A DNA stretch of 64,000 nt from Acorus gramineus (Eukaryota > Streptophyta > Magnoliopsida > Acorales > Acoraceae), in the NCBI GenBank assembly GCA_030737835.1, contig CM060850.1, positions 14,650,068 through 14,714,067 of the forward strand, read 5' to 3'. Made by a program: the position numbers and the translations under genes. Below, piece by piece: positions 5,999 to 62,643 of this stretch. Below the pieces are notes generated by a model. It was not told the origin of the DNA, did no database searches, and saw only the letters and a program-made list of their open reading frames with translations. Positions within the stretch are counted from its first letter, which is position 1. Each line of letters begins with the position of its first letter.

Positions 5999-8104
5999 TC
6001 ATTGATCATCATCTATGTTGAATTTTGTAAAATCCACCTCAAGACTATCTACAAATTCTTGATTTCTTTCATCAGCATCACTCCAATCCTTCAGACAAAT
6101 AAGAGCTTCCAGTGAACTTGCTGCCAACCTGGTCCTCCTCTCAGATAATATTCTCCCACTTGTACTAAAAGAAGATTCTGAAGCCACTGTAGACACTGGA
6201 GGAGTTAGTAAATCTCTTGCCATTATAGAAAGCACAGGAAATGTCACTTCATGTGCTTTCCACCATTGCAAGAGATCAAAATTTTCCATCTCCTTTTCAG
6301 TTAAAAGAGACTTCCAATCATTTTCTAAATATTTAAACAGTTCATTAAGATGAGAACTACCACTACTAGAATCATGTGAAGTGTGTGAACTTTGTGAAAC
6401 AAAATCAAAGAAATAATCTTTTTTCTTACCTTTGCCTAATAAACTAATAGATGAAGTGGAGGATGATGCTCTAGTTCTATTTGCATATTTATTTTCATAT
6501 TTTTTATACATTTCAGTTAAAGCAAATTCTACATCTTCACCACTTATAACCATTGGAAATCTAACATTATCACTTATTCTTGAAATTATAGTTTTAACAG
6601 TATCTAATTTAATAGTAATATCCATTACAGCAGCTAAACAAAAAAGCATAGGAATATCTTCAAAATATTTTTTAAATTTTTGTTCCATCAAGAAAATAGA
6701 TTCTTGAAGTATACTATAATCTCTATATTCTTTAAATGCACAAGAAATATTAAATAATTGTCTAAGTATAAGATTTGATGTAGGATAATAAACACCTGAA
6801 CAAGCAATAGAAGCATCATAAAAAATACTTAAAAATTGCACAAAAACTTTTGAAATTTGCCAATCAATAGGAGAAATTTCAACACGATTGTTAAACATTT
6901 CATTAAATTCAATAATCAAATTTTCATAACCCTCACAACTTTGCAACATTATATATGTAGAATTCCAACGAACATGCATATCAAGAGGAAATTTTCTAGG
7001 GGGAATATTGCGTGTCGCACAAAAATCACCAAATGCTTGTACTCTAGAAGGTGTACAAGTAATAAATTTTAATGCTAATCTAATATTTACTAATGATTCT
7101 TCAATATGAGTTAATCCATCTTGCACAATTAAATTAATAATATGACATACACATTTACAATCATAAAATTCAAAATCATAAGGTAAACCCAAAGAAGATT
7201 TAAATTTTAAAATAGCACTAACATTATTACTAGCATTATCAAAAGTTATGGATAAAATTTTTTCAGTTATATTATATTCTCTAAAAATATCCATTATTGC
7301 TTGATAAATTACTGTGCCGGTGTGTGGAAATGTAAGTGGACGAAAAGCTAACATTCTTTTATTTAACATCCAATGAGAATCAATATAATGTGAAGTAACA
7401 CAAATATAGGCTAAATCATTCTTACCGGACCATAAATCAGATGTGCATGAAATTTTTTGAATGTTCATGAATGATTGAATTAAATGATTTTTCATTTCAT
7501 TGTAAACTCTAATTATATCTGATCTAATAGTATTTCTAGAAACAGCTCTATATTGTGGATTAACGTACCTTTTTTGAAAACGTTCAAATCTTTTACTTTC
7601 AGCAAATGTAAATGGTTGTTCATCAGATGCTATATATACAGATAAACCTTCTCTCATACTAGATTGATTATAAGAGAATGTAGACATTGTACCTTCAGTA
7701 CTACCTGTTTGACCGAAACTCCCAATCTGAGACTGCGTACCGGGATTCAGTTGTTGTTGATGCCTTTTCAGACATGATTCAGCATGTCTCTTGAGATGTC
7801 CGGTACCACCCGCGCTTGCACAACTAAAATTTTTGTTACAATATTTACAAACAGCTCTATCTTCCATTCTACCTTGGTATTTAATATTCTGTATTGTGTA
7901 GTGCTCCCAAACTTCAGACTTCCTACTTCTTTTAGAGGGTTTTTTTTGTTTTCCAGTTGGGGGGTGACTAGATGATGCACCAACATCACCTCCAACTGAT
8001 TCATGGGGGGTTTGGGATTGGTCTTGGGGTAAATCATGTAGTAGGTTATCTATATTGTCAAATTCATCATCAGTGTGTGAATATTCTATGTTTGGGTTGG
8101 CCAT
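5999..8104 (-). CDS. hAT transposase with BED zinc finger, 701 aa
   Basis: The protein should cut and move the hAT element around it; related plant proteins are called RICESLEEPER or Ac-like. The first 60 residues are acidic then basic and probably disordered. A BED zinc finger follows (about 63-115) with C86 and C89 of CKYC and histidines at 103 and 107. The RNase H-like catalytic core shows the first Asp in TSDLWS (D223) and the second in ITFDNASNN (D289). The last catalytic Glu is expected in VASESSFS (about residue 643), at the start of the C-terminal dimerisation block that runs through GRILSERRTRL and ALICLKDW. The frame is uninterrupted and close to usual hAT length, and no motif is visibly lost. 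The start is the first Met of the frame, with a stop-free acidic N terminus after it. Function is inferred from motifs. Confidence 0.95.
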   Translation of the reverse strand: MANPNIEYSHTDDEFDNIDNLLHDLPQDQSQTPHESVGGDVGASSSHPPTGKQKKPSKRSRKSEVWEHYTIQNIKYQGRMEDRAVCKYCNKNFSCASAGGTGHLKRHAESCLKRHQQQLNPGTQSQIGSFGQTGSTEGTMSTFSYNQSSMREGLSVYIASDEQPFTFAESKRFERFQKRYVNPQYRAVSRNTIRSDIIRVYNEMKNHLIQSFMNIQKISCTSDLWSGKNDLAYICVTSHYIDSHWMLNKRMLAFRPLTFPHTGTVIYQAIMDIFREYNITEKILSITFDNASNNVSAILKFKSSLGLPYDFEFYDCKCVCHIINLIVQDGLTHIEESLVNIRLALKFITCTPSRVQAFGDFCATRNIPPRKFPLDMHVRWNSTYIMLQSCEGYENLIIEFNEMFNNRVEISPIDWQISKVFVQFLSIFYDASIACSGVYYPTSNLILRQLFNISCAFKEYRDYSILQESIFLMEQKFKKYFEDIPMLFCLAAVMDITIKLDTVKTIISRISDNVRFPMVISGEDVEFALTEMYKKYENKYANRTRASSSTSSISLLGKGKKKDYFFDFVSQSSHTSHDSSSGSSHLNELFKYLENDWKSLLTEKEMENFDLLQWWKAHEVTFPVLSIMARDLLTPPVSTVASESSFSTSGRILSERRTRLAASSLEALICLKDWSDADERNQEFVDSLEVDFTKFNIDDDQ

Positions 8105-8664
8105 TTGAAATTTATAAAGTACAAATTTGAAATTTGAATTTAAAATTTAAAATTTGAATTTAAAATTCTTCTATTTGAATAGTTAAAATTTAAAATATTA
8201 AAAATTTGAAATTTAAAATACACTTTGGTTTTGAAATATGGAATTAATTTGAATTTAAAACTTGAAATACACTTTGTAAAACTTGAAATTTCAAATGTGT
8301 AGAGAGTAGAGACTAGAGATGAAGAGTGTGAGACTAGTAGAGATTAGAGACTAGAGAGAGAGAGAGAGCTTCCCCTAATCTCCTTAGGCTTGGAGAGTTG
8401 GAGCCTTGAACCTTCCCACCCTTTGGAGAGAACTTCCCTTGGAAAGAGCCTTGAAGAAATGGAGATTGGAGACAGAGAGAGCTTTCACCACCACTTCAAT
8501 TTGATTGAAGTTTTCACTTGAAAAGAAAGAGAGCACTTGAACACTAGAACACTTGGAATTCCAACACAAAACTAGAAAATTTTAGAGGAAGAAGAGAGTG
8601 TAGTAGTGGAGGAGTAGAGAGATTTGTGATTGAATTGATGAAGAAATGGGTGGATGGGGTGGGG

Positions 8665-15500: not shown

Positions 15501-16508
15501 CCATTCATGCCCTCTACAACAACCTAGTAAGCATAAAAGAAGGGGAAGAAGATTACCAAAAGAGGGGGAGGAGAAGGGAAGGTGTCGGGGCTCACAATGA
15601 CACCACACACACACCACCACCACTTCACCACCATCACCACCATCTCCTTTGCTTCTCTTCTTCAAGGCTGAATTAAAATGGGTGGGGAAAATAGGGGATT
15701 CATGAGGGGGAGCTAGAGGAGGAAGGGAAAGAAGAGGCAACAACACAAACATACACACAAACCCACCTTCACTTGATCTCCCTTCATGCACTATTCATCT
15801 TCTCCTTCACTCCTAATTCAACCAAGCAAAAGGGAAATGAAAAGAACAACTCCGCCCAAAGAGGGCTCGGATGCACTCTTGTGCGGGGAGAGAGAGACAC
15901 ACAAAAGGGGGCATTTAATAGCCAAAAGTGGGGTTCAAAGGACCAAATCGTCTCTGACCAGAAATTCTGGACAGGCTTCACTAGAACAACCACAACTTCC
16001 ACAATATAGCTCTGCATTGCCCAATTCAAAATCCTTTGAAAAGCCAAGAAGATTATCTACAACTTTCATGTTTATTCTCAAATCAAATAACCCCTCCAGT
16101 TATTCCAACATGTGAGCCAAACAGCAAACAGGGCTGCTGCTAGGATTTTCTCATCCCCGGGTATAATTGGAAAAATACACATAACGTTTGCTACATGAAT
16201 CCAGTTGATCTAATTCCACTTTTGTATGAAATCTAACTCAAAACTGAACATCTCATGATAAAATCATATTTAAACTACTCCATCTTGGGCATTAACAAAA
16301 TTAAATTCGAGTATCAATAGGCATTGCATAACTTCTAAAAAGACGTCAGAATGTGATGAAAATTTACAAGTAGGCCAATGCGAGTACCAGGAGAACAATT
16401 ATGCAGTCAGATTTTTAATCAGAGCACCCTAACTCCCGCAGGGGCTAAAAGCCAAAATTCCAACAACTCTAATAAAAAAATAAGGCCCCAAATGACACTA
16501 GCATAACA
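12575..16508 (+). mobile_element. Solo LTR (about 3.9 kb) of a TGTCACGCC family
   Basis: It begins TGTCACGCCTTAGG and ends ATAACA, and matches the minus-strand solo LTR at 49503-53215 through much of its length. No internal coding region or second LTR is seen. It lies within Copia pol sequence. A target duplication is not obvious here (AGATT on the left versus CACTT on the right), unlike its relatives. Superfamily cannot be told from an LTR alone. Confidence 0.75.
13290..13690. repeat. Two tandem units inside the solo LTR
   Basis: Two diverged units share TAGCCTCTAC-TGGTATACCCCCATGATCA, GCATGCATCGATAGT and ACAGGTGGGGGCC-TCTGTCA. Equivalent units, in higher number, occur in the related minus-strand LTR at 51560-52700. 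Confidence 0.7.
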
Positions 16509-16509
16509 C

Positions 16510-16800
16510 ACTTGACTGACCGAGCGGTCAACTTGGTGCGTTGATGAGGAGAGAGAAGCATGAAATAAGTACATCCAAAAGTGCGAAGTCTACTATAATT
16601 AGATTTGGAGGAGTAACGGCACTCATGAGGGGTCATACTAGAGAGGACAGAAGAGGGAGTGATATTGATAAGATGAATAGATAAAAGAGCAGCCTCAGCC
16701 CAGAATGTGCTGGGGACGGAAGAAGAAAGTAAGAGGTAACGAGCGGTCTCAAGAATATGGCGATGTTTTCTTTCAGCAACACCATTCTGGTCATGGGTAT
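16510..16800 (-). mobile_element. Copia integrase-derived piece (minus strand)
   Basis: The minus strand carries the Copia integrase signature HDQNGVAERKHRHI followed by ARYLLL and WAEA. It lies directly beside the 12575-16508 LTR. Fossil; broken. Confidence 0.8.
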
Positions 16801-17221
16801 AAGAGCAGGATTTCTTGGAGATTCCATCATTTCTTGGGGCAGCAAGAAATATGAGACTGTTTCACTATCCAGCACTGAGGCTGAGTATCGAGCCATGGCC
16901 ATCACCACCAAGGAGATTGTTCATCTTAGACGTCTCTTGGTGGATCTATGAGTTACTATGACTGGTCCTACTCCTCTTCATTGTGATAACTGGTCTGCTA
17001 TTCAGATTGCCAACAATCCAGTTTTTCACGAGAGGACCAAACATATTGAAATCGATTGTCACTTCGTTCATCAGCACTTTCTTGCAGAGATACTATCTCT
17101 TTCGCATATTTCCTCTACTGAACAACTTGCTGATTTCTTCACGAAGTCACATCCAGTTCCTCAATTTCAGTTCTCGTTCGCAATCTCCCTTTGTATGATC
17201 CACCGTGAGTTTGAGGGGAGC
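16800..17221 (+). mobile_element. Copia RNase H-derived piece (plus strand)
   Basis: SSTEAEYRAMA at about 16870 and [12 protein letters not shown], then LADFFTK, are the standard end of a Copia polyprotein. The following sequence runs into the right LTR at 17222. Fossil; broken. Confidence 0.85.
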
Positions 17222-26890: not shown

Positions 26891-27779
26891 TGACTAGGCT
26901 GTTGGTCGCCCTTGGTCCACCGGTAGTCTCTCCTCACTCCGTAGGTCGTTTGGCCACTCCCATGTTCAGCACAGTCCTTCTACCAAATCAGGAGGCGCCT
27001 ACTACTGGGAGCCCCTGCACGGGACAACCTGTCTAACGCTGAGGTAGTCTCTACACGGATCCAACGAAGGGAACAGAACAGCCTATCCATCGCATATGAT
27101 CCACTCGGATCCGCAGACAACACATCATAACAACACTAATGTTCTGAATTCCTCAGAACCCACCAGGGCGCATAACTACGATGCGGGGAACATGCATAAG
27201 GTTATAACAAGGGTGGAATATCATTGGGGGAAAGAAACTCGGGAGGGCAGCGTGAGTTCCCGTTATAGGACACCCCGACAACCAAACAAGGAACACGGTG
27301 TACCCTAACCCGGGTCTCACCGCTGTCCTCGCAAGGCCCCTCCCCTATAATATTCACTATAACATGCAATTTAACAAATACTAGCATTTAATTTAATAAA
27401 TAAACTAGTAGGGCACATTCATCGGTCGGGCTTCCTAACATGGAAACAGGGGACATGGTGCATGGCTCATACCCATATCCTAAGGGTGCAAGTCCCTAAC
27501 ATGCAAAGTCTAGGGTAACATGCATTCTACAATTAAATCATGCTCGCATGATATACATATTACAACAGGTCAATATCCCTCCATGGTGCCCCAGGAGAGG
27601 TCGGTATACGCCCAAGTGCGTATAACGCCTCTCTACTGGGTTGGATTGTCCCACTCACCGGAATCCGGGTCGTCGCGCGACCGCTCGCCAAGATCTGCAA
27701 GACAGGTATTTATACGGTGAGTAAAATCCACAAATACCCCAAAATCCACAATTAAATACTCTAAAAATACCCAACACTC

Positions 27780-28260
27780 GGACAAACGTACATACGGCCC
27801 GTACGCACGCGTATCCGAGCATCCCGACTCACTCCCGAACCCACCGGGCAGCCGCACGCACGGCCACCCGCCCCGGGCGCACAGCCGAGCCCCGGCCCGC
27901 GCGCCAAGGCGCACTGCCGAGCCCAGCCCGCACACCCGGACACCACCGGCGCACTGTCGCACGCCTGCCCGCGCGCCCCGACGCACCGCCGCACGCACGT
28001 GCACGCTCGCGCGCGCCCGCGCGCACCGCGCATCCAGCCCAGCGCCCCCCCGCGCGCACTGCACGCACGCCCCAGCACGCGCACGCACTGGTCCCCAGCA
28101 CCCAACGCCCAACGCCCGCGCCCAGTGCCCAGCACCCAGCGCCCAGCGCCACCCGCGCGCGCGCACGCCCGCGCGCACGCGCGCGCGCCCCTGCCAGCTG
28201 CTGCGCCTGTGCTGCCTGTGCTGCTGCCTGTGCTGCTGCCTGTGCTGCTGCCAGCCCGAG
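27780..28260. repeat. GC-rich, CpG-dense low-complexity block in an LTR
   Basis: About 480 bp of GCGCGC, GCACGC and CCCGCGCGC runs in an otherwise AT-rich region, ending in repeated TGCTGCCTGTGC. It starts shortly after an ATCTGCAAG motif. A related block in the opposite orientation occupies about 50440-50990 of another LTR. Long open frames on both strands come from composition. Confidence 0.75.
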
Positions 28261-29243
28261 CTCCCCTACCACCCACCTCCGGCCACCAATGGCCTCCGAC
28301 CACCACCCCACAGCCCTCCGACGGCCACCCACCGCCGCCGACCACCACCCAACCCCAAATCCATCCCCCTAGCATACATCTATGCAAGAAAAGAGAGGAA
28401 AAGAGGCTTACCAAGGGGAGGAAGCGAAGTCCGGTTGCTCTCCACGCACCGAAACCTCCCTCAAAAGGCTTCTAACGCCCGGATCTACCTCCACCACCGA
28501 AATGGCTCAAATCAGGGAAGAAGAGAGGGGGGACGGAGGGGCAAATCTCGCCGGAATTCGAATTTGAAAGCACCGGGGTGTAGATCGGGACCCGATCTAC
28601 ACTTCCTATGCTTTAGGTTTTAAGCTTTGAGGGCTCTAGGGGGGTCAAAAGTGAGAAAAAGAGAGAGGGGAGAGAGAAAAACTCATTTGGTAGGGATGAT
28701 GAACAGTAACTCGGGAATTAGATCCCACTCTTATATAGTGTGCGACTTAAAAACCCGGATACGCCCCGGAACTGCGAAATTTCAGAAACGTTACCGGAAT
28801 TCGACGAAATTTTCGTGAGAGGCCTAAAATGGCACCAGGACACCAAATATGCAGTTAGATTTTCAATCGGAGTCCTCTAACTCAGGACGATAGCTAACAG
28901 TCCAAAAATTAGCGGTTCCGATCGAAAAACTGAAAAAAATGAAAAACTGCCAGAACGCTCCAACGGTTACCAGCAGGCTAAAAGTGACACATATATAACA
29001 TAGAGTCACCACCCACCCAATCAAAGAACCAACCAAAACCCAATAACAGCTAAACACATATACCATTTGGAACTGTATAATTTTTAAAACGATGTCAGAA
29101 TACGATGAAAATTTACAGCTAAATCAAAGCAGATATTAAGATCACCAATATGCGGTTATATTTTTAAATTGAGCGCCTAAACTTTTAAAAATAAATAAAA
29201 CATGATATTAATCACTTAAAAGTGACACAAATATAACATAATT

Positions 29244-32301: not shown

Positions 32302-34626
32302 TCATTTCATGTCCTGAACAGCCTTGGATGTGAAAGAGTAAGGCTTGGCTTTTTGGCAATCCAAATTGTCACCGTAGCTCACACCGAGCATGTCGCAGTA
32401 CCTCTTGTAGTATCCAATGCGGTCCTCTGCATTCGCATTAGGTCCTTGCCCGCACTCAGCAACACCATTGATGATGTTTGTGGTCGCTCCGAACCCCGCC
32501 AACCGCCCGGCCTCCTCATCCTCCTCCGACGGCGTCCAACCCCCTGTGATGGCGTCGTGGCACGACGGCATAGGTGGATTAGGCGTCATCCAGTACCAGA
32601 AGGCCGTGTCGAATGATATTTTCCCTTTCTTCGCGACCAACTCCGGGTGGTTGAGGAGGTCGACTCCTAAGGCCTCCCCCGCCTTACCGTACACGATGTT
32701 GCTGATCAAAATAGAGAAATTATTTTAGTATATCAGATTTTTATCGATTTTTGTCAGTACTCAAAGGTCTATTTAAGAAAAAAATTAAAAATTAATTAGT
32801 TGCTGATCAAAATCGAGAAATTAATTAGTATATTAGATTCTTATCAGTTTTTATCGGTACTTGACGAGAAACTAATAAAGGTCTATTTAAGAAAAAATTT
32901 AGCAATCTGCCCCGCCTGACCATACATGTAGGTTTTTTTTTTTTTAAATGATAGTTGAACCTTATGGTCAAGCTCGTAGGCTATCTCTATCTGTTTGTCT
33001 AAGTCCCACATAAAATTCTTTTAAATTTTGTCAAACAAAAAACGTGATTTTTAACACAGCGTTAAGACTCAAGTCCAAGACCTACCTTTAACACAAATAG
33101 ATCATAAACCATACACGTAGTTACTGATCAAAATTGAGAAATTAATTAGTATATCAGATTTTCATCAATTTTTATCAGTACTCAATGAGAAACTGATAAA
33201 AGTCTATTTAAGAGAAATTTTAGACATTTGTGTAACTTGTTTGTTTGGGTGTGATGAATTGAATTAAGTTGAATGATTTAATTATTGACACCCACTATTT
33301 GATTTTCATGGGTCCTCGGCCATAGTATTGCTTATTGGGTGCGCAGGGATATTCATCACTCGGTTCGCATTCATAGGCGTTGCTTCGTTCTTCCTTCTTA
33401 CAGTAACCCCACGTGTAAGGTTCTTCTCGCCATCCACCTGTGCATAATATATATATAAATAAACCATTCATCAAAAACATGTAAAACAAAACAACAACAA
33501 TAACAATATATATATATATATATATATATGAAAAAAATAAGATAAACCAAACTGATAATGGTGAATCGTGTTCTGAGGATCAGTTCAGCATTTATTTTAT
33601 TTTCATTTTGCTATAACATCTAGAAAAATTGTTTTTGAAATCCTTCGATTCCAATCCTCATTCATTTTTAGATATATATTTAAACTAATTTTTTTTATTT
33701 CATAGAATCTACTAGAACCAGATTCTTGTGAAAGAAGAATTCACCTTCTTAATTGGCCAGATTTATCAAACTGGCATTAAGAGTCAATTTAACATTAATT
33801 CTCATTCACGTTCTACTAAAACACTTTGGAAAATTATGTTTACAATTATTTATTCATGTGCTAATTGCTGGATATTTAGGAAGAATGTAACAAAAAATAA
33901 AGGTTATAAAAAAAAACAATTTTTTGAGGTGTTATGTAGAAGAAGGACAATGAAAATGAACGTCAAACTCGCATGATTAATTAACAACCTCATACATATA
34001 TGTATTAGGAATAAAGAGTTTGATTGGGTTAATGCAATAAGATTTGATGTAGTTAACAAATTCTGGTGAGATTTAAATCTTTCTGTTTATGAAAAAATAA
34101 TATTAAGAAATGTAGTCTCTTGTGTATTTACATTTCTCTCCGTTCTCTTTTCTTCTCTCCATTGTATTATCTTTTATTTTAGATTTTAAATTTTCAACAA
34201 GACCTACTTACCAGTGGTTTGATGTGATGTCTGAGCAAGAAAAGCCGCGATCTCCCTCTTTCGCGTATCCTCATCACCGGTCGTCGAGAACCCTTCGAAC
34301 GAGTTCCCGGAGACCAGGAAATCATCGTATTTGTAAAAGCCCCTGGCGGGGCAAATCGGGTCGTCACGGTGCTTCAACATTTCGTTGAACAATGACAGGT
34401 TCACGAGTGATCCGACTGCGCCGAAGCACGGGCCGCTCTGGCAGCCCGGACCGCAGTAAGCGTCATTGGTGCCGCAGAAACCCCATTGACTGCAGCAGAG
34501 GATATGAGAAGGGCAGAGTGCACCATTGGCTTCTCTTCCACATACGGGTGGTTCAGAGGAAACCAATATTGTGGTTGTTGTTAAGAAGAGAAAGATAGTG
34601 AGACTTATCAGTGTGTGAGATTTCAT
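32302..34626 (-). CDS. Class I-like GH19 chitinase paralogue with a likely dead active site, 318 aa
   Basis: Exons are 34212-34626, 33296-33437 and 32302-32701, joined by GTAAGT...CAG and GTGGGT...CAG introns. Both introns match those of the right paralogue in site and phase. Residues 1-24 are a signal peptide; I start at 34626, as an upstream Met overlaps the TATA box. A hevein domain spans about 25-69 with eight cysteines and the chitin-binding set S46, W48, F50, Y57. The GH19 domain follows. The first catalytic Glu (HETTG) is Gln136 (SHQTTG, codon CAA), while the second is kept as E155 by ungapped alignment. Cleft residues also differ: [14 protein letters not shown] replaces the usual GRGPIQIS.NYNYG, giving K183, K185 and V189 for Gln, Ser and Asn. 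The C terminus resembles a vacuolar sorting tail. I infer a secreted or vacuolar chitin-binding protein with little or no hydrolysis. Confidence 0.93.
32702..33235 (-). repeat. Three decayed copies of the intron 2 / exon 3 junction inside intron 2
   Basis: A roughly 100-bp unit occurs at about 32701-32797, 32801-32903 and 33120-33232. On the gene's strand each unit ends ATTTTGATCAG. The true copy continues CAACATCGTGTACGG (exon 3). The copy at 33120 continues TAACTACGTGTATGG. Near 32905-32937 a further scrap reads CTACATGTATGGTCAGGCGG, close to the exon 3 start of both paralogues. The extra copies keep splice-acceptor-like ends but do not encode a full exon. Confidence 0.75.
33438..34211 (-). 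other. Intron 1 of the left chitinase gene
   Basis: AT-rich, with a (TA)n run at about 33508-33528. The plus-strand open frame inside it shows no domain. Confidence 0.85.
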
Positions 34627-34669: not shown

Positions 34670-34680
34670 ATTTTATAGAG
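34670..34680 (-). promoter_or_regulatory. TATA box of the left chitinase gene
   Basis: CTCTATAAAAT on the minus strand lies 44-54 nt upstream of the chosen ATG, giving a short leader of about 15-25 nt. Its position argues against the more upstream in-frame Met at 34671. Confidence 0.75.
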
Positions 34681-50276: not shown

Positions 50277-50439
50277 TGTGGGTGCGTCGAAGGCCTCTGA
50301 ACCGCCCCCTTCCTTTTCCCTTCCCAAGATGAGCCCTTCCTCTTCTTTTCTTGGTTTTCATGGCATAGGGGGCTGTTGGGATGGTTAGGGAGGTCATGCA
50401 TGCTAGGTAGATGGGTTAGAGCGTGTGTGAGAGGTTGGG

Positions 50440-50990
50440 GAGGGTTAAAAAGGGGTTAGGGAAGAGTGGGCGAGCGTTGGGGGGGCTGTCTGCGCGCAGG
50501 CGGGCGCTGGCGGGCGCGCAGACGAGCGCTGGCGGACGTGCAGACGCGCGCGGGCGCGTGTGCTCGAGTGCGCGGGTGCACGCGGCCCGCGCACACGCGC
50601 CCGCGGAGTGGGCGTGCGGGTGCGCGCGAGCGGGGGTGTGGGCGGGAGTGTGCGCGAGCGTGCGCGCGCGCGGAGCAGTGCGCCTGGGCATGCGCCTGGG
50701 CGAGGGGCACTGGCGTGCGCGCAGGGTGCTGCGCGGGGGCGCAGTGCGCGCGGGTACGCACTGGGCTAGACGCTCGGTGCGCGCGAGCGTGAGCGCGCGC
50801 GTGGCAGCGCGTTTGGGTGCGCGGGCAGGGGCGCGGCAGTGCGCCAGGGGTGCTGGGGTGCGTGCGTGCGTATGCATGCGTGCACGTGCGGGGGGCATGC
50901 GTGTGGCTGCCCGAGGGTTCGGGTAGGTGTCGGGGCACTCGGACTCGCGTGCGTACGTGCGTGCTTGCATGCGTGCGAGTCCTTATGCAT
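50440..50990. repeat. GC-rich, CpG-dense block in the minus-strand LTR
   Basis: About 550 bp of GCGCGCG, GGGCGCGC and GTGCGTGCG runs. On the LTR's own strand it follows an ATCTGCAAGG motif and ACTCGGACAAG-like sequence, as the block at 27780-28260 does. Long open frames in all directions come from composition. Confidence 0.75.
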
Positions 50991-51559
50991 GCTTGTCCGA
51001 GTATTGGGTATTTTTAATGATTTCTATGTGTAAATTGTGTTGTTACTCACCAAATTGGATGCCCCTACCTTGCAGATCTCATCGGATGGGATGCGCGAGG
51101 TCCCGGGTCGTATGGTGAGTGGTTCGATTCCAATCCCCCCCCCCCCCTCTCTAGGGATGCGCTCGACCCGCGTAGACGCGCGTCGCGCATCGATGGGGCC
51201 CCCTAGCTATAATATGTAGATACTATGTAATGCATGTTTTAATATGATGTAACCATGCCATATTAGACCTTGTATGCTAGGGATATACATTCATATATCA
51301 TGTATAGAGGTCCATACATGCCTAGACACCATGTCCCATGCTAGGAAAGCCTTGACCTACGCATGATTCCCATTTAATTTAATTTATTTAAATCAAATGT
51401 GAATATATTGTTATAAGCATGCCTTAGAGAATATTATAACCTTGTTGTTATAAAATATGTTTCCCCGCATCTTAGTTATGCGCCCTGGAGGAATTCTTGA
51501 GAATTCATGACATTAGTAGTGTTATAAATCGTAGTCGACGGATCCAAGAGGATCATATC

Positions 51560-57488: not shown

Positions 57489-58850
57489 TGTAGTCCTTAA
57501 TACATTATCACAGGATGTCTGTTTTTTTTTTTAAAAAAAAAAAAAAATATTTAGATTTCAAATCAACTCATGCAGCATGCAACTAGTGCATGCCACTGAA
57601 CAGACATAGAATTCGATGAATTTCTTCCCTGAATTGTCACTTCATAATGATTAGTGGGGAATAGATATGATGAAACATTGAAGAATAACTCAAATAAAAT
57701 TGTTTGTAATTGCAACAAATAAGTTGATATAGCTGTCATGATAAAACTGGTTTTCCACTGGAATTGTGTTATTTAATTCAATTTATTCTCTCAATTTATT
57801 CTACTTATATTTGAGGTTCACACATCAAATCATTTGTCATCACCTCTTATAAATCATGGAACTCACAGGTCAAATCATTTTTAACTTTATAAATTTTTAT
57901 CCACATCTTATTCTACTTTTATCTACAACTTTTATATGATCGAATCTTCCGATCTTCTTCGAAGCCTAAAATTCTCTGTTATTCGGTAAATCATGCAAGC
58001 CACTTCCTTCCGGTTCGAATCATTCACCTTTGATGATCCAGATTCCCCCCTTTCCCCCTTGCTCCTAAATTCCAGAGTCTATTTCAGATCTCCTATCATG
58101 AAAAAGAAGTCTTCTCGAAGTGGATCTCTTGGTTGAAAGTCAATTCAGATGGTTCGCTTGCAGAAGATTGATATGGATTTGGTGCATTTATTCAGAATCA
58201 CAATGGTTTCAATCCCATTCAGCCAGGATTCGTGCATGCTCGATTAACATTTTAGAGATCAGAGGGGTCCTTGCGGAAGTTCAACTAGCTAGCAAAGCCA
58301 GCGCTTCACATGTTTGGAGTGAGACTAATTCCACCACGGTAGTGGTTTGGTCCCATGGCTATGGCCTTATTCCTTGGATAGTTATTCGGGACATCTGTTC
58401 TCTCCATCGAATTACTTATTCTTTCACTTCTCGGAAGATACCTCATGTCTATCGGGAGGGTAACCATGCCACTGATGTCCTAGCAGCTCATCAATTAGCC
58501 ATTGGTCAATCCTACTTCAACTCATCCATGTTGTGGGATACACTGAATTCTCTTTCTCAGGAAGATAAGGAGGGTTTCAAACTTCTTCGAAAGGATGATG
58601 CATCATCGGTGATTATTATTAGCCTCCCTTTCAATCTACCCTCTCTTTTGTAATGGAGGTTGACTAAGCCAACCATCTCTTTCCCTTCTCTTCTCATATA
58701 CATTTTATCTTTCTTATAGCAATACATATCTACTAATTACCAAGTCTAAAAAAAAAAAGATAATACATGGTCAATCAAACAACAAAAATTTTATTATTAT
58801 ATTTTTTAATTAACTTTAAAACACAACTAAACAAAAAATAATTTATTTTT
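57489..58850 (+). repeat. Tandem duplication, copy B
   Basis: It matches copy A from TTTGTAGTCCTTAATACATT to AAAACACAAC.AAACAAAAAATAATTTATTTTT, without the MITE-like block and solo LTR. Confidence 0.8.
58085..58760 (+). mobile_element. LINE 3' tail (RNase H and poly(A)), copy B
   Basis: It is homologous to 56697-57400. The open frame 58120-58653 contains VYREGNHATDVLAAHQ and ends with KLLRKDDASSV, as in copy A. The DGS start of the domain lies in another frame, so the domain is shifted. A poly(A) run lies at 58748-58758. Confidence 0.7.
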
Positions 58851-59949: not shown

Positions 59950-62643
59950 ATGAAGGGTTACACAGTGATCCTCCTCTTCTTGACAATAACAACCACATCA
60001 ATGGTTGTCTCTGGGCAACCAATATGTGGAAAACAAGCCAACAATGCACTCTGCCCCAACGACCTCTGCTGCAGCGCGAGCGGTTACTGCGGCATCTCTG
60101 TTTACCACTGCAAAGATGGCTGTCAAAGCCAATGCGACGGCGCAGACCCGGAACCCCCTGAAGAAGGCGTTGGCCCCGTCGGATCGCTCGTCAGCCAGTC
60201 TTTGTTTGAGGAGATGTTGAAGCACCGCAACGACGAGGTTTGCCCCGCCAGAAAGTTCTTCCATTACCACGATTTCATGGTTTCAGGGAACTCGTTCGAG
60301 GGGTTCGCCTCGACCGGTGATGAGAATACGCGTAAGAGGGAGATGGCCGCTTTTCTTGCCCACACTTCCCATGAAACCACTGGTACGTACATACTTTTGA
60401 TGAAGGAAGGAAATGAAAGAGAATAAGAGAGAAAATAATAATTTCAAATTCTTTGATAATTCTGAATAATCCAACACACAGTGTTTAAATAACAAAACTA
60501 CTGGTACGCGATGACCGGTGATGAAGTAGTCAAATGTCCTTTTGATGTAGGACAGACAGAGAAGAGATAATAATTGTTCATATTCTTTAATAATCCACTA
60601 AATGGTATACATGTACATGTTTAAATAATAAAGCAAATCACATCTTAATCAAGTAAAACTACTCTAGTCTTCCTATAAAATTATGTAGTATCCTAATCAT
60701 CCACATCATCAGTTGTCCGATTGCTTTTTGAGTAATGTTTTAAAACCCTACCCGATCTGGTCGGTTGAGCCGATTAAACCTTTACTTTGTCTGCTTTGAA
60801 TTCTTGTTCGATTTACTCTTAAAACCCAATGACATAAATTAAAAATCGATAAAACTCAATCAACTTACTGGTTGAAATGATGGTTTTTGTGAACCTACAC
60901 GGGCTAATTAAACCAATCGATTTTTTTATTAATAGAAATTGTGATTAATTACTTGATAAAATATAAAACATTTCATAACTTTTATTTAGTGTTGATAATT
61001 AATATATTAATTATATTATAATTATGTAACGGTTCAAATTCAGTTGGCCTGACAATTGAACTAGTCACCTTTAATCCGTTTTTTTATTTTTTTTTGTCAG
61101 TGGACGATTTGATTTGCTTTTGAGTAAATATTTGTATTTATTGATTAATTATATATATATATATACACACACTGCACATAGGTGGATGGCCGGGTGGACC
61201 AGAACCCTACACGTGGGGTTACTGTTACAAGGAAACTCCAAGTCCCGCGTATTTTTGCGAAGGACCATGTGAAGAAAAATATCCATGCGCAGACGGCAAG
61301 CACTACTACGGCCGAGGACCCATGCATATCACCACGTGAGTGTCTTTTTGTTGTATAATAAAATGTGCGATTTGTATAAATAACCTCAATCCCATTTCTT
61401 GAATATTTGTAAAAAAATATATTATTTGATCCAGTCAACGCTGCAAAGATTAACTATTTAAAAAGAAGACGTGATATATATATCATACCTAATATGACAG
61501 CGCTAGTTGGGTCAAAAGTTAGTTTTTGTTGGTATTCATTAAATTGAGTTTATTTATGCAAATTGCATTAGTAAAATGCAAAATTTACATAAATAACTTT
61601 ATTTTTGTAATATTAGCATGAATAATCTCGCTCTTAAGACATTTCATTTATAAAAATTAACATTTGATACAATTGGCACTGTAAAAATTAAACATTTAAA
61701 AAAAAGACGTGATATATGTATCACATCTGACCTGACAACGCTGATTAGATATTGAGTTTATTTTTGTTAATATTTAAAAAAGTGAGTTCATTTATGCAAT
61801 TAAATCGCCTTAATAAAATCATTCTGATTCGATTCATGATGTCTCTAATACTATTATTTTGATTAGAAACTGCATGTACAAATAATCTCATTTCTTGAAT
61901 ATATATAAAAAATTAAAATTTGATCAAGCAAGCCCTGCAAAAATTAACTACTTCTCAGTGAGATGCATGTATCACGCCTGACATAACAGTGCGCTGAGAA
62001 GTTATTTTTTTGTTAATATTCAAGAAAACAAAATTCATTAATACAAATCACCCAAATAAAATGATTCAATTTTATTCATGACCATTTCTGTTTCCGATAC
62101 TTTTTTTTTTTTTGAAAAATTTGTAGTTCATTTATATCAAAAAAAAAAAAAAAAAATTATGATTACAAATGAGTCAAATGAGGAGAGAACAGAAGGCATA
62201 AAAGAGTTTCTCATACTAATATATTGATTTTGATCAGCAACTGCATGTACGGCGAGGCGGGAGAATACCTCGGCATCGACCTCCTGAACAACCCAGAGTT
62301 GGTAGCGACCAACGGAACCATATCATTCGAGACGGCCTTCTTGTTGTGGATGACGGCTCACCCGCCCAAGCCGTCGTGCCACGACGTCATGACGGGGAAA
62401 TGGAGGCCATCGGAGAACGATTTGGAGAATGGGCGTCGACGGGGGTTCGGAGAGACCATAAACATCATCAATGGAGCCGAAGAGTGCGGCGGGAACGACA
62501 TAAGCAAGCGGGCGGAAGACCGCATCGGGTTCTATAAGAGGTACTGCGACATGCTCGGTGTGAGCTATGGTCACCACCTCGACTGCAAGAACGCCCAGCC
62601 TTACTCTCTGATATCGGAGGTCGTCGCTCGGGGCATGAAATGA
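59950..62643 (+). CDS. Class I-like GH19 chitinase paralogue with a divergent chitin-binding module, 330 aa
   Basis: Exons are 59950-60382, 61182-61335 and 62238-62643, with GTACGT...TAG and GTGAGT...CAG introns in the same positions and phases as the left paralogue. Residues 1-22 are a signal peptide. The hevein domain (about 23-64) keeps all eight cysteines, but the first aromatic is Ser (SASGYC, S44) and the late Tyr position is His53. A Pro/Glu-rich linker (65-76) precedes the GH19 domain. The first catalytic Glu is kept (SHETTG, E142). The second Glu lies one residue early by ungapped alignment (CYKET: E162, then T163). The cleft reads [14 protein letters not shown], with His193, Thr195 and Met199 for the usual Gln, Ser/Thr and Asn. 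C174 and C198 are extra cysteines. [11 protein letters not shown]-type C-terminal motifs (about [11 protein letters not shown]) are normal. The product should be secreted or vacuolar; activity on chitin is uncertain. Confidence 0.95.
60383..61181 (+). other. Intron 1 of the right chitinase gene
   Basis: AT-rich. Near 60498-60530 a scrap reads ACTACTGGTACGCGATGACCGGTGATGA, which echoes the exon 1 end ACCACTGGTACG and the exon 1 block GACCGGTGATGAGAA, suggesting a small duplication from the exon. A (TA)n run precedes the 3' splice site. Confidence 0.8.
61370..62230 (+). repeat. Three diverged tandem units in intron 2, one with an exon 3-like start
   Basis: Units of about 215-290 bp begin near 61376, 61590 and 61877 and share TAAATAA..TC, AACTATTTAAAAAGAAGACG-like sequence, GACGTGATATAT and TTTTTGTTAATATT. 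Between units two and three, TTTTGATTAG (ending 61866) is followed by AAACTGCATGTAC, nearly the same as the true junction TTTTGATCAG / CAACTGCATGTAC at 62238. Used as an acceptor it would meet a stop codon two codons later. Confidence 0.75.

What the first reader, a model, noticed from the sequence alone, without database searches (positions are those of the whole stretch)
32302..34626. Chitinase paralogue with Gln in place of the first catalytic Glu, but intact chitin-binding residues
The GH19 signature HETTG reads HQTTG (Q136, codon CAA, one base from GAA). The usual Gln, Ser/Thr and Asn of the GRGPIQ.S.NYN block are Lys183, Lys185 and Val189. In barley GH19 chitinase the equivalent first Glu is the general acid and its loss abolishes activity. 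Yet the frame is open across three exons, all eight hevein cysteines and the S/W/F/Y binding set are kept, and TATA box and signal peptide look normal. This fits a gene selected as a chitin-binding or decoy protein rather than an enzyme.
Basis: partly seen in the sequence, partly recalled or inferred. Interest (0 to 1): 0.75.

Follow-up and report, generated by a model that had tools for sequence, protein, structure and literature searches.

The report
Disarmed chitinase kept under selection
This plant gene encodes a chitin-cutting defence enzyme whose cutting residues have been replaced while its chitin-gripping domain and overall fold look preserved, so it probably now works by binding rather than cutting; similar disarmed chitinases are already known from other plants.

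Summary
The gene (exons 34626-34212, 33437-33296, 32701-32302, minus strand, 318 aa) reads HQTTG with K183, K185 and V189. A second copy 173 kb away and another pair of paralogues in the same tandem array also read HQTTG, so a base-calling error is very unlikely. The change is larger than reported: 8 of 14 invariant sugar-cleft positions differ, against 12 of 96 other invariant positions (Fisher P 0.0005), while eight catalytic-domain cysteines, hevein S/W/F/Y, splice sites and TATA box are kept. Codon models show cleft turnover (P 0.0012 against background) beside a constrained scaffold (omega 0.28, P 2e-5 against 1; active paralogue 0.29). The other GH19 gene in the window (59950-62643) kept the first Glu but lost or displaced the second, and its cleft is also dismantled. 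Best reading: a secreted, catalytically dead class I chitinase-like protein that binds chitin through hevein. A decoy role is untested. Evidence dated after the last duplication is weak (6 nonsynonymous, 6 synonymous differences; not below the intron rate). Precedents exist: PDB 4mst reads HATTG, nettle-type lectins have Ala, class VII mostly Lys. New variant of a known kind.

The parts
34212..34626 (-). Exon 1: signal peptide (by eye), hevein domain, short hinge, first part of GH19 domain up to HQTTG
   Evidence: donor GTAAGT
33296..33437 (-). Exon 2: GH19 segment with second catalytic Glu kept (KKEER) and GPMKIK
   Evidence: PF00182 2.6e-11
32302..32701 (-). Exon 3: rest of GH19 domain (NIVYG onward), C-terminal extension and stop
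   Evidence: PF00182 5.4e-51
34426..34542 (-). Hevein (chitin-binding) domain, 8 Cys, S/W/F/Y sugar-binding set kept
   Evidence: (PF00187 residues 29-67), alignment; hevein site residues from PMC5374622 (passages)
34219..34221 (-). Codon CAA, Q136, in place of the first catalytic Glu (barley Glu67)
33304..33306 (-). Codon AAA, K183, in place of Gln118 (barley numbering)
   Evidence: role of Gln118 from PMC2976769 (passages)
33298..33300 (-). Codon AAA, K185, in place of Ser120 that positions the catalytic water
   Evidence: PMC2976769 (passages)
32692..32694 (-). Codon GTG, V189, in place of Asn124 (Met in the second copy and in the neighbour gene)
34670..34677 (-). TATA box, identical in the second copy
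   Evidence: promoter alignment
59950..60382 (+). Neighbour GH19 gene L011, exon 1: HETTG kept; hevein W21>S and Y30>H
61182..61335 (+). Neighbour gene L011, exon 2: Thr at the second catalytic Glu (a Glu stands one place before), GPMHIT
62238..62643 (+). Neighbour gene L011, exon 3 with stop

Best explanation
The gene encodes a secreted (possibly vacuolar) class I chitinase-like protein that no longer hydrolyses chitin. SHOWN in sequence: general acid Glu>Gln, water-positioning Ser>Lys, Gln>Lys, Asn>Val and further sugar contacts replaced; hevein domain, shared cysteines, frame and splice sites retained; cleft turned over while the scaffold stayed constrained over the lineage. INFERRED: it acts as a one-site hevein-type lectin that holds fungal or insect chitin through the N-terminal domain, with the GH19 fold kept as a stable carrier whose old cleft is idle or binds something else. 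It belongs to a tandem array in which catalytic residues were replaced in three gene types, at different positions, beside a paralogue with a canonical active site (L014/L015).
For: Residues. Cleft 8 of 14 vs other 12 of 96 invariant columns changed, Fisher P 0.0005. Codon model: cleft foreground vs background P 0.0012; rest omega 0.277, P 2e-5 against 1 and not different from background (P 0.59); interval about 0.17-0.48 (nearly the same columns). Hevein omega 0.10, P 0.036 against 1. The canonical paralogue L014 keeps its cleft (omega 0.002) and has scaffold omega 0.29; the neighbour L011 shows the same pattern as this gene (cleft P 0.0033, scaffold 0.264). Two copies plus L012/L013 share CAA. 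Splice sites and proximal promoter kept. A neutral frame of this length stayed open in 0 of 400 runs at 0.35 substitutions per site (substitutions only). Roles of Glu67, Glu89, Ser120, Gln118, Asn124: PMC2976769 (passages). A Gln mutant of the second catalytic Glu of a class I chitinase was completely inactive: PMC12667207 (passages).
Against: No transcript, protein or activity data. Differences between the two copies are 6 synonymous and 6 nonsynonymous (omega 0.30, P 0.042), but nonsynonymous divergence is not below intron divergence (Fisher P 0.39), so constraint after the last duplication is weakly supported. Part of the scaffold constraint may predate inactivation. Chitin binding by hevein is inferred from residues only. 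The second catalytic Glu and the residues coordinating the general acid (Glu203, Arg215) are still present, so trace activity is not formally excluded. Over 60 likelihood-ratio tests were run; the scaffold result survives correction for all of them, the cleft contrast only a correction for the four lineages compared.
Confidence: 0.7

Rival explanations
1. Recent pseudogene: catalysis was lost late and the frame is open only because decay has not had time to show.
For: Pair divergence is small (dS 0.03); a neutral frame stayed open by substitutions alone in 60% of 400 runs at 0.013 and 26% at 0.03 substitutions per site. Nonsynonymous divergence equals intron divergence within error. The array holds true relics (L024, L025).
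Against: Cleft-wide turnover beside a constrained scaffold on a long branch, with the same pattern in the surviving sister gene L011. Both copies keep frame, splice sites and proximal promoter. If cleft loss began before the L011 split (Met at the Asn124 site in L009 and L011), the frames have stayed open over a pairwise dS of about 0.7.
Confidence: 0.15
2. Neofunctionalised cleft: replacement by Lys and other residues created a site for another ligand (anionic glycan, microbial effector or chitinase inhibitor), with hevein as targeting domain.
For: Cleft foreground omega at the upper bound (about 20) against 0.11 background (P 0.0012); three new Lys in the cleft (F164, Q196, S198 in Drosera numbering).
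Against: Cleft omega is not significantly above 1 (P 0.146), so plain relaxation suffices. No ligand known. L011 turned over with mostly different residues.
Confidence: 0.2
3. Decoy that absorbs microbial proteases or inhibitors aimed at active chitinases.
For: Coexists in one array with a gene of canonical active site (L014/L015). Fungal proteases that cut the polyglycine linker of a plant chitinase are documented (abstract start in search listing, PMC9912923).
Against: The cleft surface is changed, and the Gly/Asp-rich hinge seen in L014 is reduced to a few residues. No direct evidence.
Confidence: 0.07
4. Active enzyme with altered chemistry or weak activity using the remaining second Glu.
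For: Second Glu, His of HETTG, and Glu203 and Arg215, said to coordinate the general acid, are kept (PMC4100196 passages).
Against: General acid, water-positioning Ser, Gln and Asn are all replaced, plus further cleft contacts.
Confidence: 0.04
5. About origin, not function: the Gln codons in the two array lineages (this gene/L009 and L012/L013) reflect one mutation spread by gene conversion rather than two mutations.
For: The last 88 nt of exon 1 prefer grouping the Gln genes by 3.05 lnL.
Against: That preference is not significant (AU P 0.10 for the main tree). Run tests for conversion give P 0.08-0.10 and their best segment lies elsewhere (signal-peptide columns 11-14). The whole gene rejects the grouping (AU P 5e-5).
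Confidence: 0.3

Closest known systems
GH19 class I chitinase-like protein of solved chain 4mst (hevein domain 4mpi); that these are the Hevea brasiliensis proteins of Martinez-Caballero et al. 2014 is recalled; the paper itself was seen only as a citation in PMC12355970
   Same: First catalytic Glu replaced while the GH19 fold is kept: 4mst reads HATTG (alignment). 4mpi matches the hevein part.
   Different: Ala, not Gln; in the printed 4mst chain the GPIQLSWNYN block is intact, whereas here it reads GPMKIKYNIV.
CHIT 4 / class VI, Urtica dioica agglutinin type (PMC8547705, section 12)
   Same: Inactive GH19 with chitin-binding domain, characterised as lectins.
   Different: Glu replaced by Ala in all members; the classical definition has two chitin-binding modules (15 of 31 members fit); here Gln and one hevein domain.
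CHIT 3 / class VII chitinase-like proteins, CTL1 type (PMC8547705 section 12; PMC10960159 abstract start in listing)
   Same: GH19 fold without the first catalytic Glu.
   Different: Glu deleted or mostly Lys. L021 and L022 of this genome look like that type (SKTSC; label recalled). The finding groups with class I genes.
Drosera adelae class I chitinase laboratory mutant E167Q (PMC12667207, passages and section 24)
   Same: Glu>Gln at a catalytic Glu gives a folded, inactive protein.
   Different: That mutant concerns the second Glu; here the first is replaced.
Paralogues L012/L013 in the same array
   Same: HQTTG, CAA codon.
   Different: Cleft nearly intact (2 of 14 invariant cleft columns changed) and hevein reduced to six Cys (alignment).

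Membership tests
GH19 fold (PF00182) | Match over curated cut-off | tested here: met
   All three exons over cut-off
Hevein / CBM18 (PF00187) | 8 Cys and S19/W21/W(aromatic)23/Y30 | tested here: met
   (E 5.3e-13); residues alignment; site definition PMC5374622 (passages)
Active class I chitinase | First catalytic Glu (general acid) | tested here: not met
   Gln136
Active class I chitinase | Second catalytic Glu | tested here: met
   KKEER, aligned Glu
Active class I chitinase | Water-positioning Ser/Thr120, Gln118, Asn124 | tested here: not met
   Lys, Lys, Val
Active class I chitinase | Chitin hydrolysis | not testable with these tools
   needs purified protein
Class I chitinase-like protein (4mst type) | Hevein plus GH19 domain with first Glu lost, closest to class I | tested here: met
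   a tree with the 4mst protein itself was not made
Class I chitinase-like protein (4mst type) | Chitin binding without hydrolysis | not testable with these tools
   biochemical
CHIT 4 / class VI (UDA type) | Glu>Ala; classically two chitin-binding modules | tested here: not met
   Gln and one hevein domain
CHIT 3 / class VII (CTL1 type) | Glu deleted or mostly Lys | tested here: not met
   Gln
Pseudogene | Frame or splice damage | tested here: not met
Pseudogene | Neutral rate across the frame | tested here: inconclusive
   Not neutral over the lineage; undecided for the time after the last duplication

The most novel reading that the evidence does not exclude
One tandem array has disarmed its chitinases repeatedly and in different ways: Glu67>Gln with a dismantled cleft and intact hevein (this gene and its copy); Glu67>Gln with a nearly intact cleft and six-Cys hevein (L012/L013, a natural counterpart of substrate-trapping laboratory mutants, as recalled); and Glu89>Thr with a dismantled cleft and weakened hevein (L011); beside an enzyme with a canonical active site. 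If these are expressed, the plant may deploy a graded set of chitin holders and chitin cutters from one locus, with the cleft of the clade of this gene and L011 reshaped for a new ligand.
Probability: 0.25. Interest if true: 0.65.

Novelty: new variant of a known kind. Interest (0 to 1): 0.42.

Why it matters
It gives a natural series in one locus (canonical enzyme; Gln with near-intact cleft; Gln plus dismantled cleft; second-Glu change plus dismantled cleft) in which the consequences of losing catalysis in plant chitinases can be tested by expressing the seven complete array genes. It suggests that the cleft and the scaffold of a GH19 protein can come under separate selection, and warns that genes annotated as chitinases may not be enzymes.

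Tried and rejected
Base-calling error: very unlikely, four loci of the assembly carry CAA. Wrong gene model: rejected, GT-AG introns and open frames in all seven complete array genes. Gene conversion as source of Gln: neither shown nor excluded. Single origin of Gln by descent: rejected for the whole gene (AU P 5e-5). Class VII or class VI membership: residues do not fit. 'HQTTG' in print: 1 paper of 5.39 million holds the string, a Phytophthora effector paper seen only in the listing; this does not show that the motif is unreported, since papers rarely print it and most subscription papers are not held. The search for HETTG gave 516 papers; the 30 listed are unrelated by title (mostly toxicology; perhaps part of a surname). 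Species identity: not established; no plant collection is on hand, so orthologues in other plants could not be compared.

Selection tests used 9 of the 20 GH19 gene models that I made. Dropped before the count: class IV-like genes (L019a, b, c, L020), CTL1-like genes (L021, L022), relics (L017a, L017b, L023, L024, L025). L018 is partial and its model has a frameshift step before the aligned part. The models of dropped genes are crude (class I query). Likelihood-ratio tests number 63 over, many repeating one hypothesis, uncorrected; hevein (P 0.036) and pair (P 0.042) would not survive correction. Tests without effect: the two-ratio model for this lineage over the whole gene is not better than one ratio (0.42 vs 0.28, P 0.12); hevein omega does not differ from background (P 0.33). 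Script slips: one search left Y174 out of the cleft set; searches took the first instead of the second Asn of NIIN for N277; one search used wrong exon boundaries. Searches (cleft; exons) are the corrected runs; the Fisher counts did not change, the P values moved slightly. The cleft estimate for L012 is unstable (0.40, upper bound, neither significant). The binomial test (P 0.029) is superseded by the intron comparison.

Full report
WHAT IS THERE. The window is C4:14650068-14714067 of a 398.6-Mb genome in 137 contigs; gene content and introns point to a flowering plant (inference), species unknown. At 32302-34626 on the minus strand lies a three-exon gene for 318 aa with GT-AG introns. Pfam places a hevein domain (residues 29-67, E 5.3e-13) and a GH19 domain across all three exons. 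A hydrophobic N-terminal stretch reads as a signal peptide (by eye). A C-terminal extension ([11 protein letters not shown]) is shared with the array paralogues (alignment); such extensions serve as vacuolar sorting signals in some GH19 chitinases (PMC4100196, abstract passage), which is only an analogy here.

ARRAY. PF00182 gave 50 exon-level matches in the genome (a lower bound), from which I made 20 gene models. First-Glu position: Glu in 8 (L011, L014, L015, L016, L018, L019a, L019c, L020), Gln in 4 (this gene, L009, L012, L013), Lys in 2 (L021, L022), unclear in 1 (L019b), motif missing in 5 relics (L017a, L017b, L023, L024, L025). The gene sits in a tandem array at C4:14.44-14.71 Mb that is itself an imperfect segmental duplication (aligned blocks of 1.5 kb or more, 87-98% identical in the same orientation; part of the region was not available): relics L024/L025, HQTTG genes L013/L012, HETTG genes L015/L014, and L009/this gene. 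For L011 (window 59950-62643) one search found no second copy. Whether the duplication is real or two haplotypes placed in tandem cannot be settled here. All 9 hevein-domain matches found in the genome lie at GH19 loci, 4 of them at HQTTG genes.

ACTIVE SITE. GH19 roles: Glu67 general acid, Glu89 general base, Ser120 water positioning, Gln118 accessory, Asn124 key for activity (PMC2976769, passages). Here these read Q, E, K, K, V; in L012 Q, E, S, Q, N; in L011 E, T, T, H, M; in L014 E, E, S, Q, N. In L011 a Glu stands one place before the Thr, so displacement rather than loss is possible. Glu203 and Arg215 are kept in all nine genes aligned. Taking the 17 cleft residues named from docking for Drosera adelae chitinase (PMC12667207, section 24; its C-terminal Ser left out) plus Gln118, and six reference catalytic domains (3cql, 7v91, the designed Anc5, L014, L016, L018), 110 columns are invariant, 14 of them in the cleft. 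The window gene differs at 8 of 14 cleft and 12 of 96 other columns (Fisher P 0.0005); L009 the same; L011 8 of 14 and 14 of 96 (P 0.001); L012 2 of 14 and 7 of 96 (P 0.32). Eight cysteine columns of the catalytic domain are kept in the window gene, L009, L012, L011 and L014. The hevein site S19/W21/W23/Y30 (PMC5374622, passages) reads S/W/F/Y here and S/S/Y/H in L011. L012/L013 lack the last two hevein Cys, like six-Cys hevein peptides described in that paper. The Gly/Asp-rich hinge of L014 is reduced to a few residues here.

TREE. Nucleotide and protein trees join this gene and L009 with L011, apart from L012-L016 and L018 (support 99.7/100 and 99.3/100). Grouping the two Gln lineages is rejected for the whole gene (AU P 5e-5) and separately for exon 1 (0.015) and exons 2+3 (0.006); only the last 88 nt of exon 1 lean the other way, not significantly; run tests give no significant conversion tract (P 0.08-0.10), and their best segment is not at this place. 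So Glu>Gln (CAA against GAA both times) arose twice or was copied once by a short conversion. Met stands at the Asn124 site in both L009 and L011, which suggests, but does not prove, that cleft loss began before those lineages split.

SELECTION. Stem rates of this gene and L014 do not differ (P 0.51), and giving this lineage its own whole-gene rate does not improve the fit (P 0.12). Splitting the GH19 domain: cleft 18 codons, foreground at the upper bound (about 20) against 0.11 background (P 0.0012; against 1 P 0.146); rest 0.277 (P 2e-5 against 1; interval about 0.17-0.48). L011: cleft P 0.0033 against background, rest 0.264. L012: cleft not different from background (P 0.12, unstable estimate), rest 0.39. 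L014: cleft 0.002, rest 0.293. Thus the cleft was released or reshaped while the scaffold was not. Hevein omega on this lineage is 0.10 (P 0.036 against 1; not different from background, P 0.33). Against this: between the two copies there are 6 synonymous and 6 nonsynonymous differences; omega 0.30 (P 0.042), yet the nonsynonymous rate is not below the intron rate of 17 in 1359 (counts; Fisher P 0.39). Selection after the last duplication is therefore unproven.

MECHANISM. Most likely the protein is a binder: hevein holds chitin, the GH19 fold persists as a carrier, and hydrolysis is gone. Loss of hydrolysis follows from established roles of the replaced residues; chitin binding follows from the hevein residues; the biological role (fungal wall or insect chitin) is inference. 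A changed cleft with three new lysines could serve a new ligand, but plain relaxation explains the data equally well.

KNOWN. Inactive GH19 proteins are established: class VII with Glu deleted or mostly Lys, and nettle-type lectins with Ala (PMC8547705, section 12). A solved class I chain, 4mst, reads HATTG; I recall it as a Hevea chitinase-like protein, whose 2014 paper I saw only as a citation. The word glutamine does not occur in the main text of PMC8547705, and I noticed no natural Gln case in the titles and abstract starts listed; that does not show that none is in print. The finding is a new variant of a known kind; its extra interest is the repeated, differently built disarming within one array.

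Noticed in passing
59950-62643 (+), L011: Second GH19 gene in the window: HETTG kept, but Thr at the second catalytic Glu, cleft dismantled (8 of 14) and hevein W21>S, Y30>H; complementary loss to the finding.
   Followed up: yes
L012 and L013 (C4:14.62 and 14.46 Mb): HQTTG genes with a nearly intact cleft and a hevein domain lacking the last two Cys.
   Followed up: partly
C4:14.44-14.69 Mb: Array lies in an imperfect tandem segmental duplication (blocks 87-98% identical) with interruptions that differ between the two units; could also be two haplotypes placed in tandem.
   Followed up: partly
whole genome: All 9 hevein-domain (PF00187) matches found lie at GH19 loci; no separate hevein lectin was seen (lower bound).
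   Followed up: no
5999-8146 (-): Long open frame (715 aa) of a hAT transposase with BED finger, RNase-H-like and dimerisation domains.
   Followed up: no
16469-16861 (-) and 58102-58653 (+): Retroelement fragments: retroviral polymerase SH3-like domain (PF25597) and a reverse-transcriptase-like match just under cut-off (PF13456).
   Followed up: no
27633-28623 and 50416-51013: Two stretches open in several frames on both strands with similar Ala/Arg/Pro-rich translations (by eye), perhaps copies of one repeat.
   Followed up: no
L024, L025 (C4:14.438 and 14.616 Mb): Paired GH19 relics with only exon 2 and 3 remnants recognised, duplicated with the array.
   Followed up: partly
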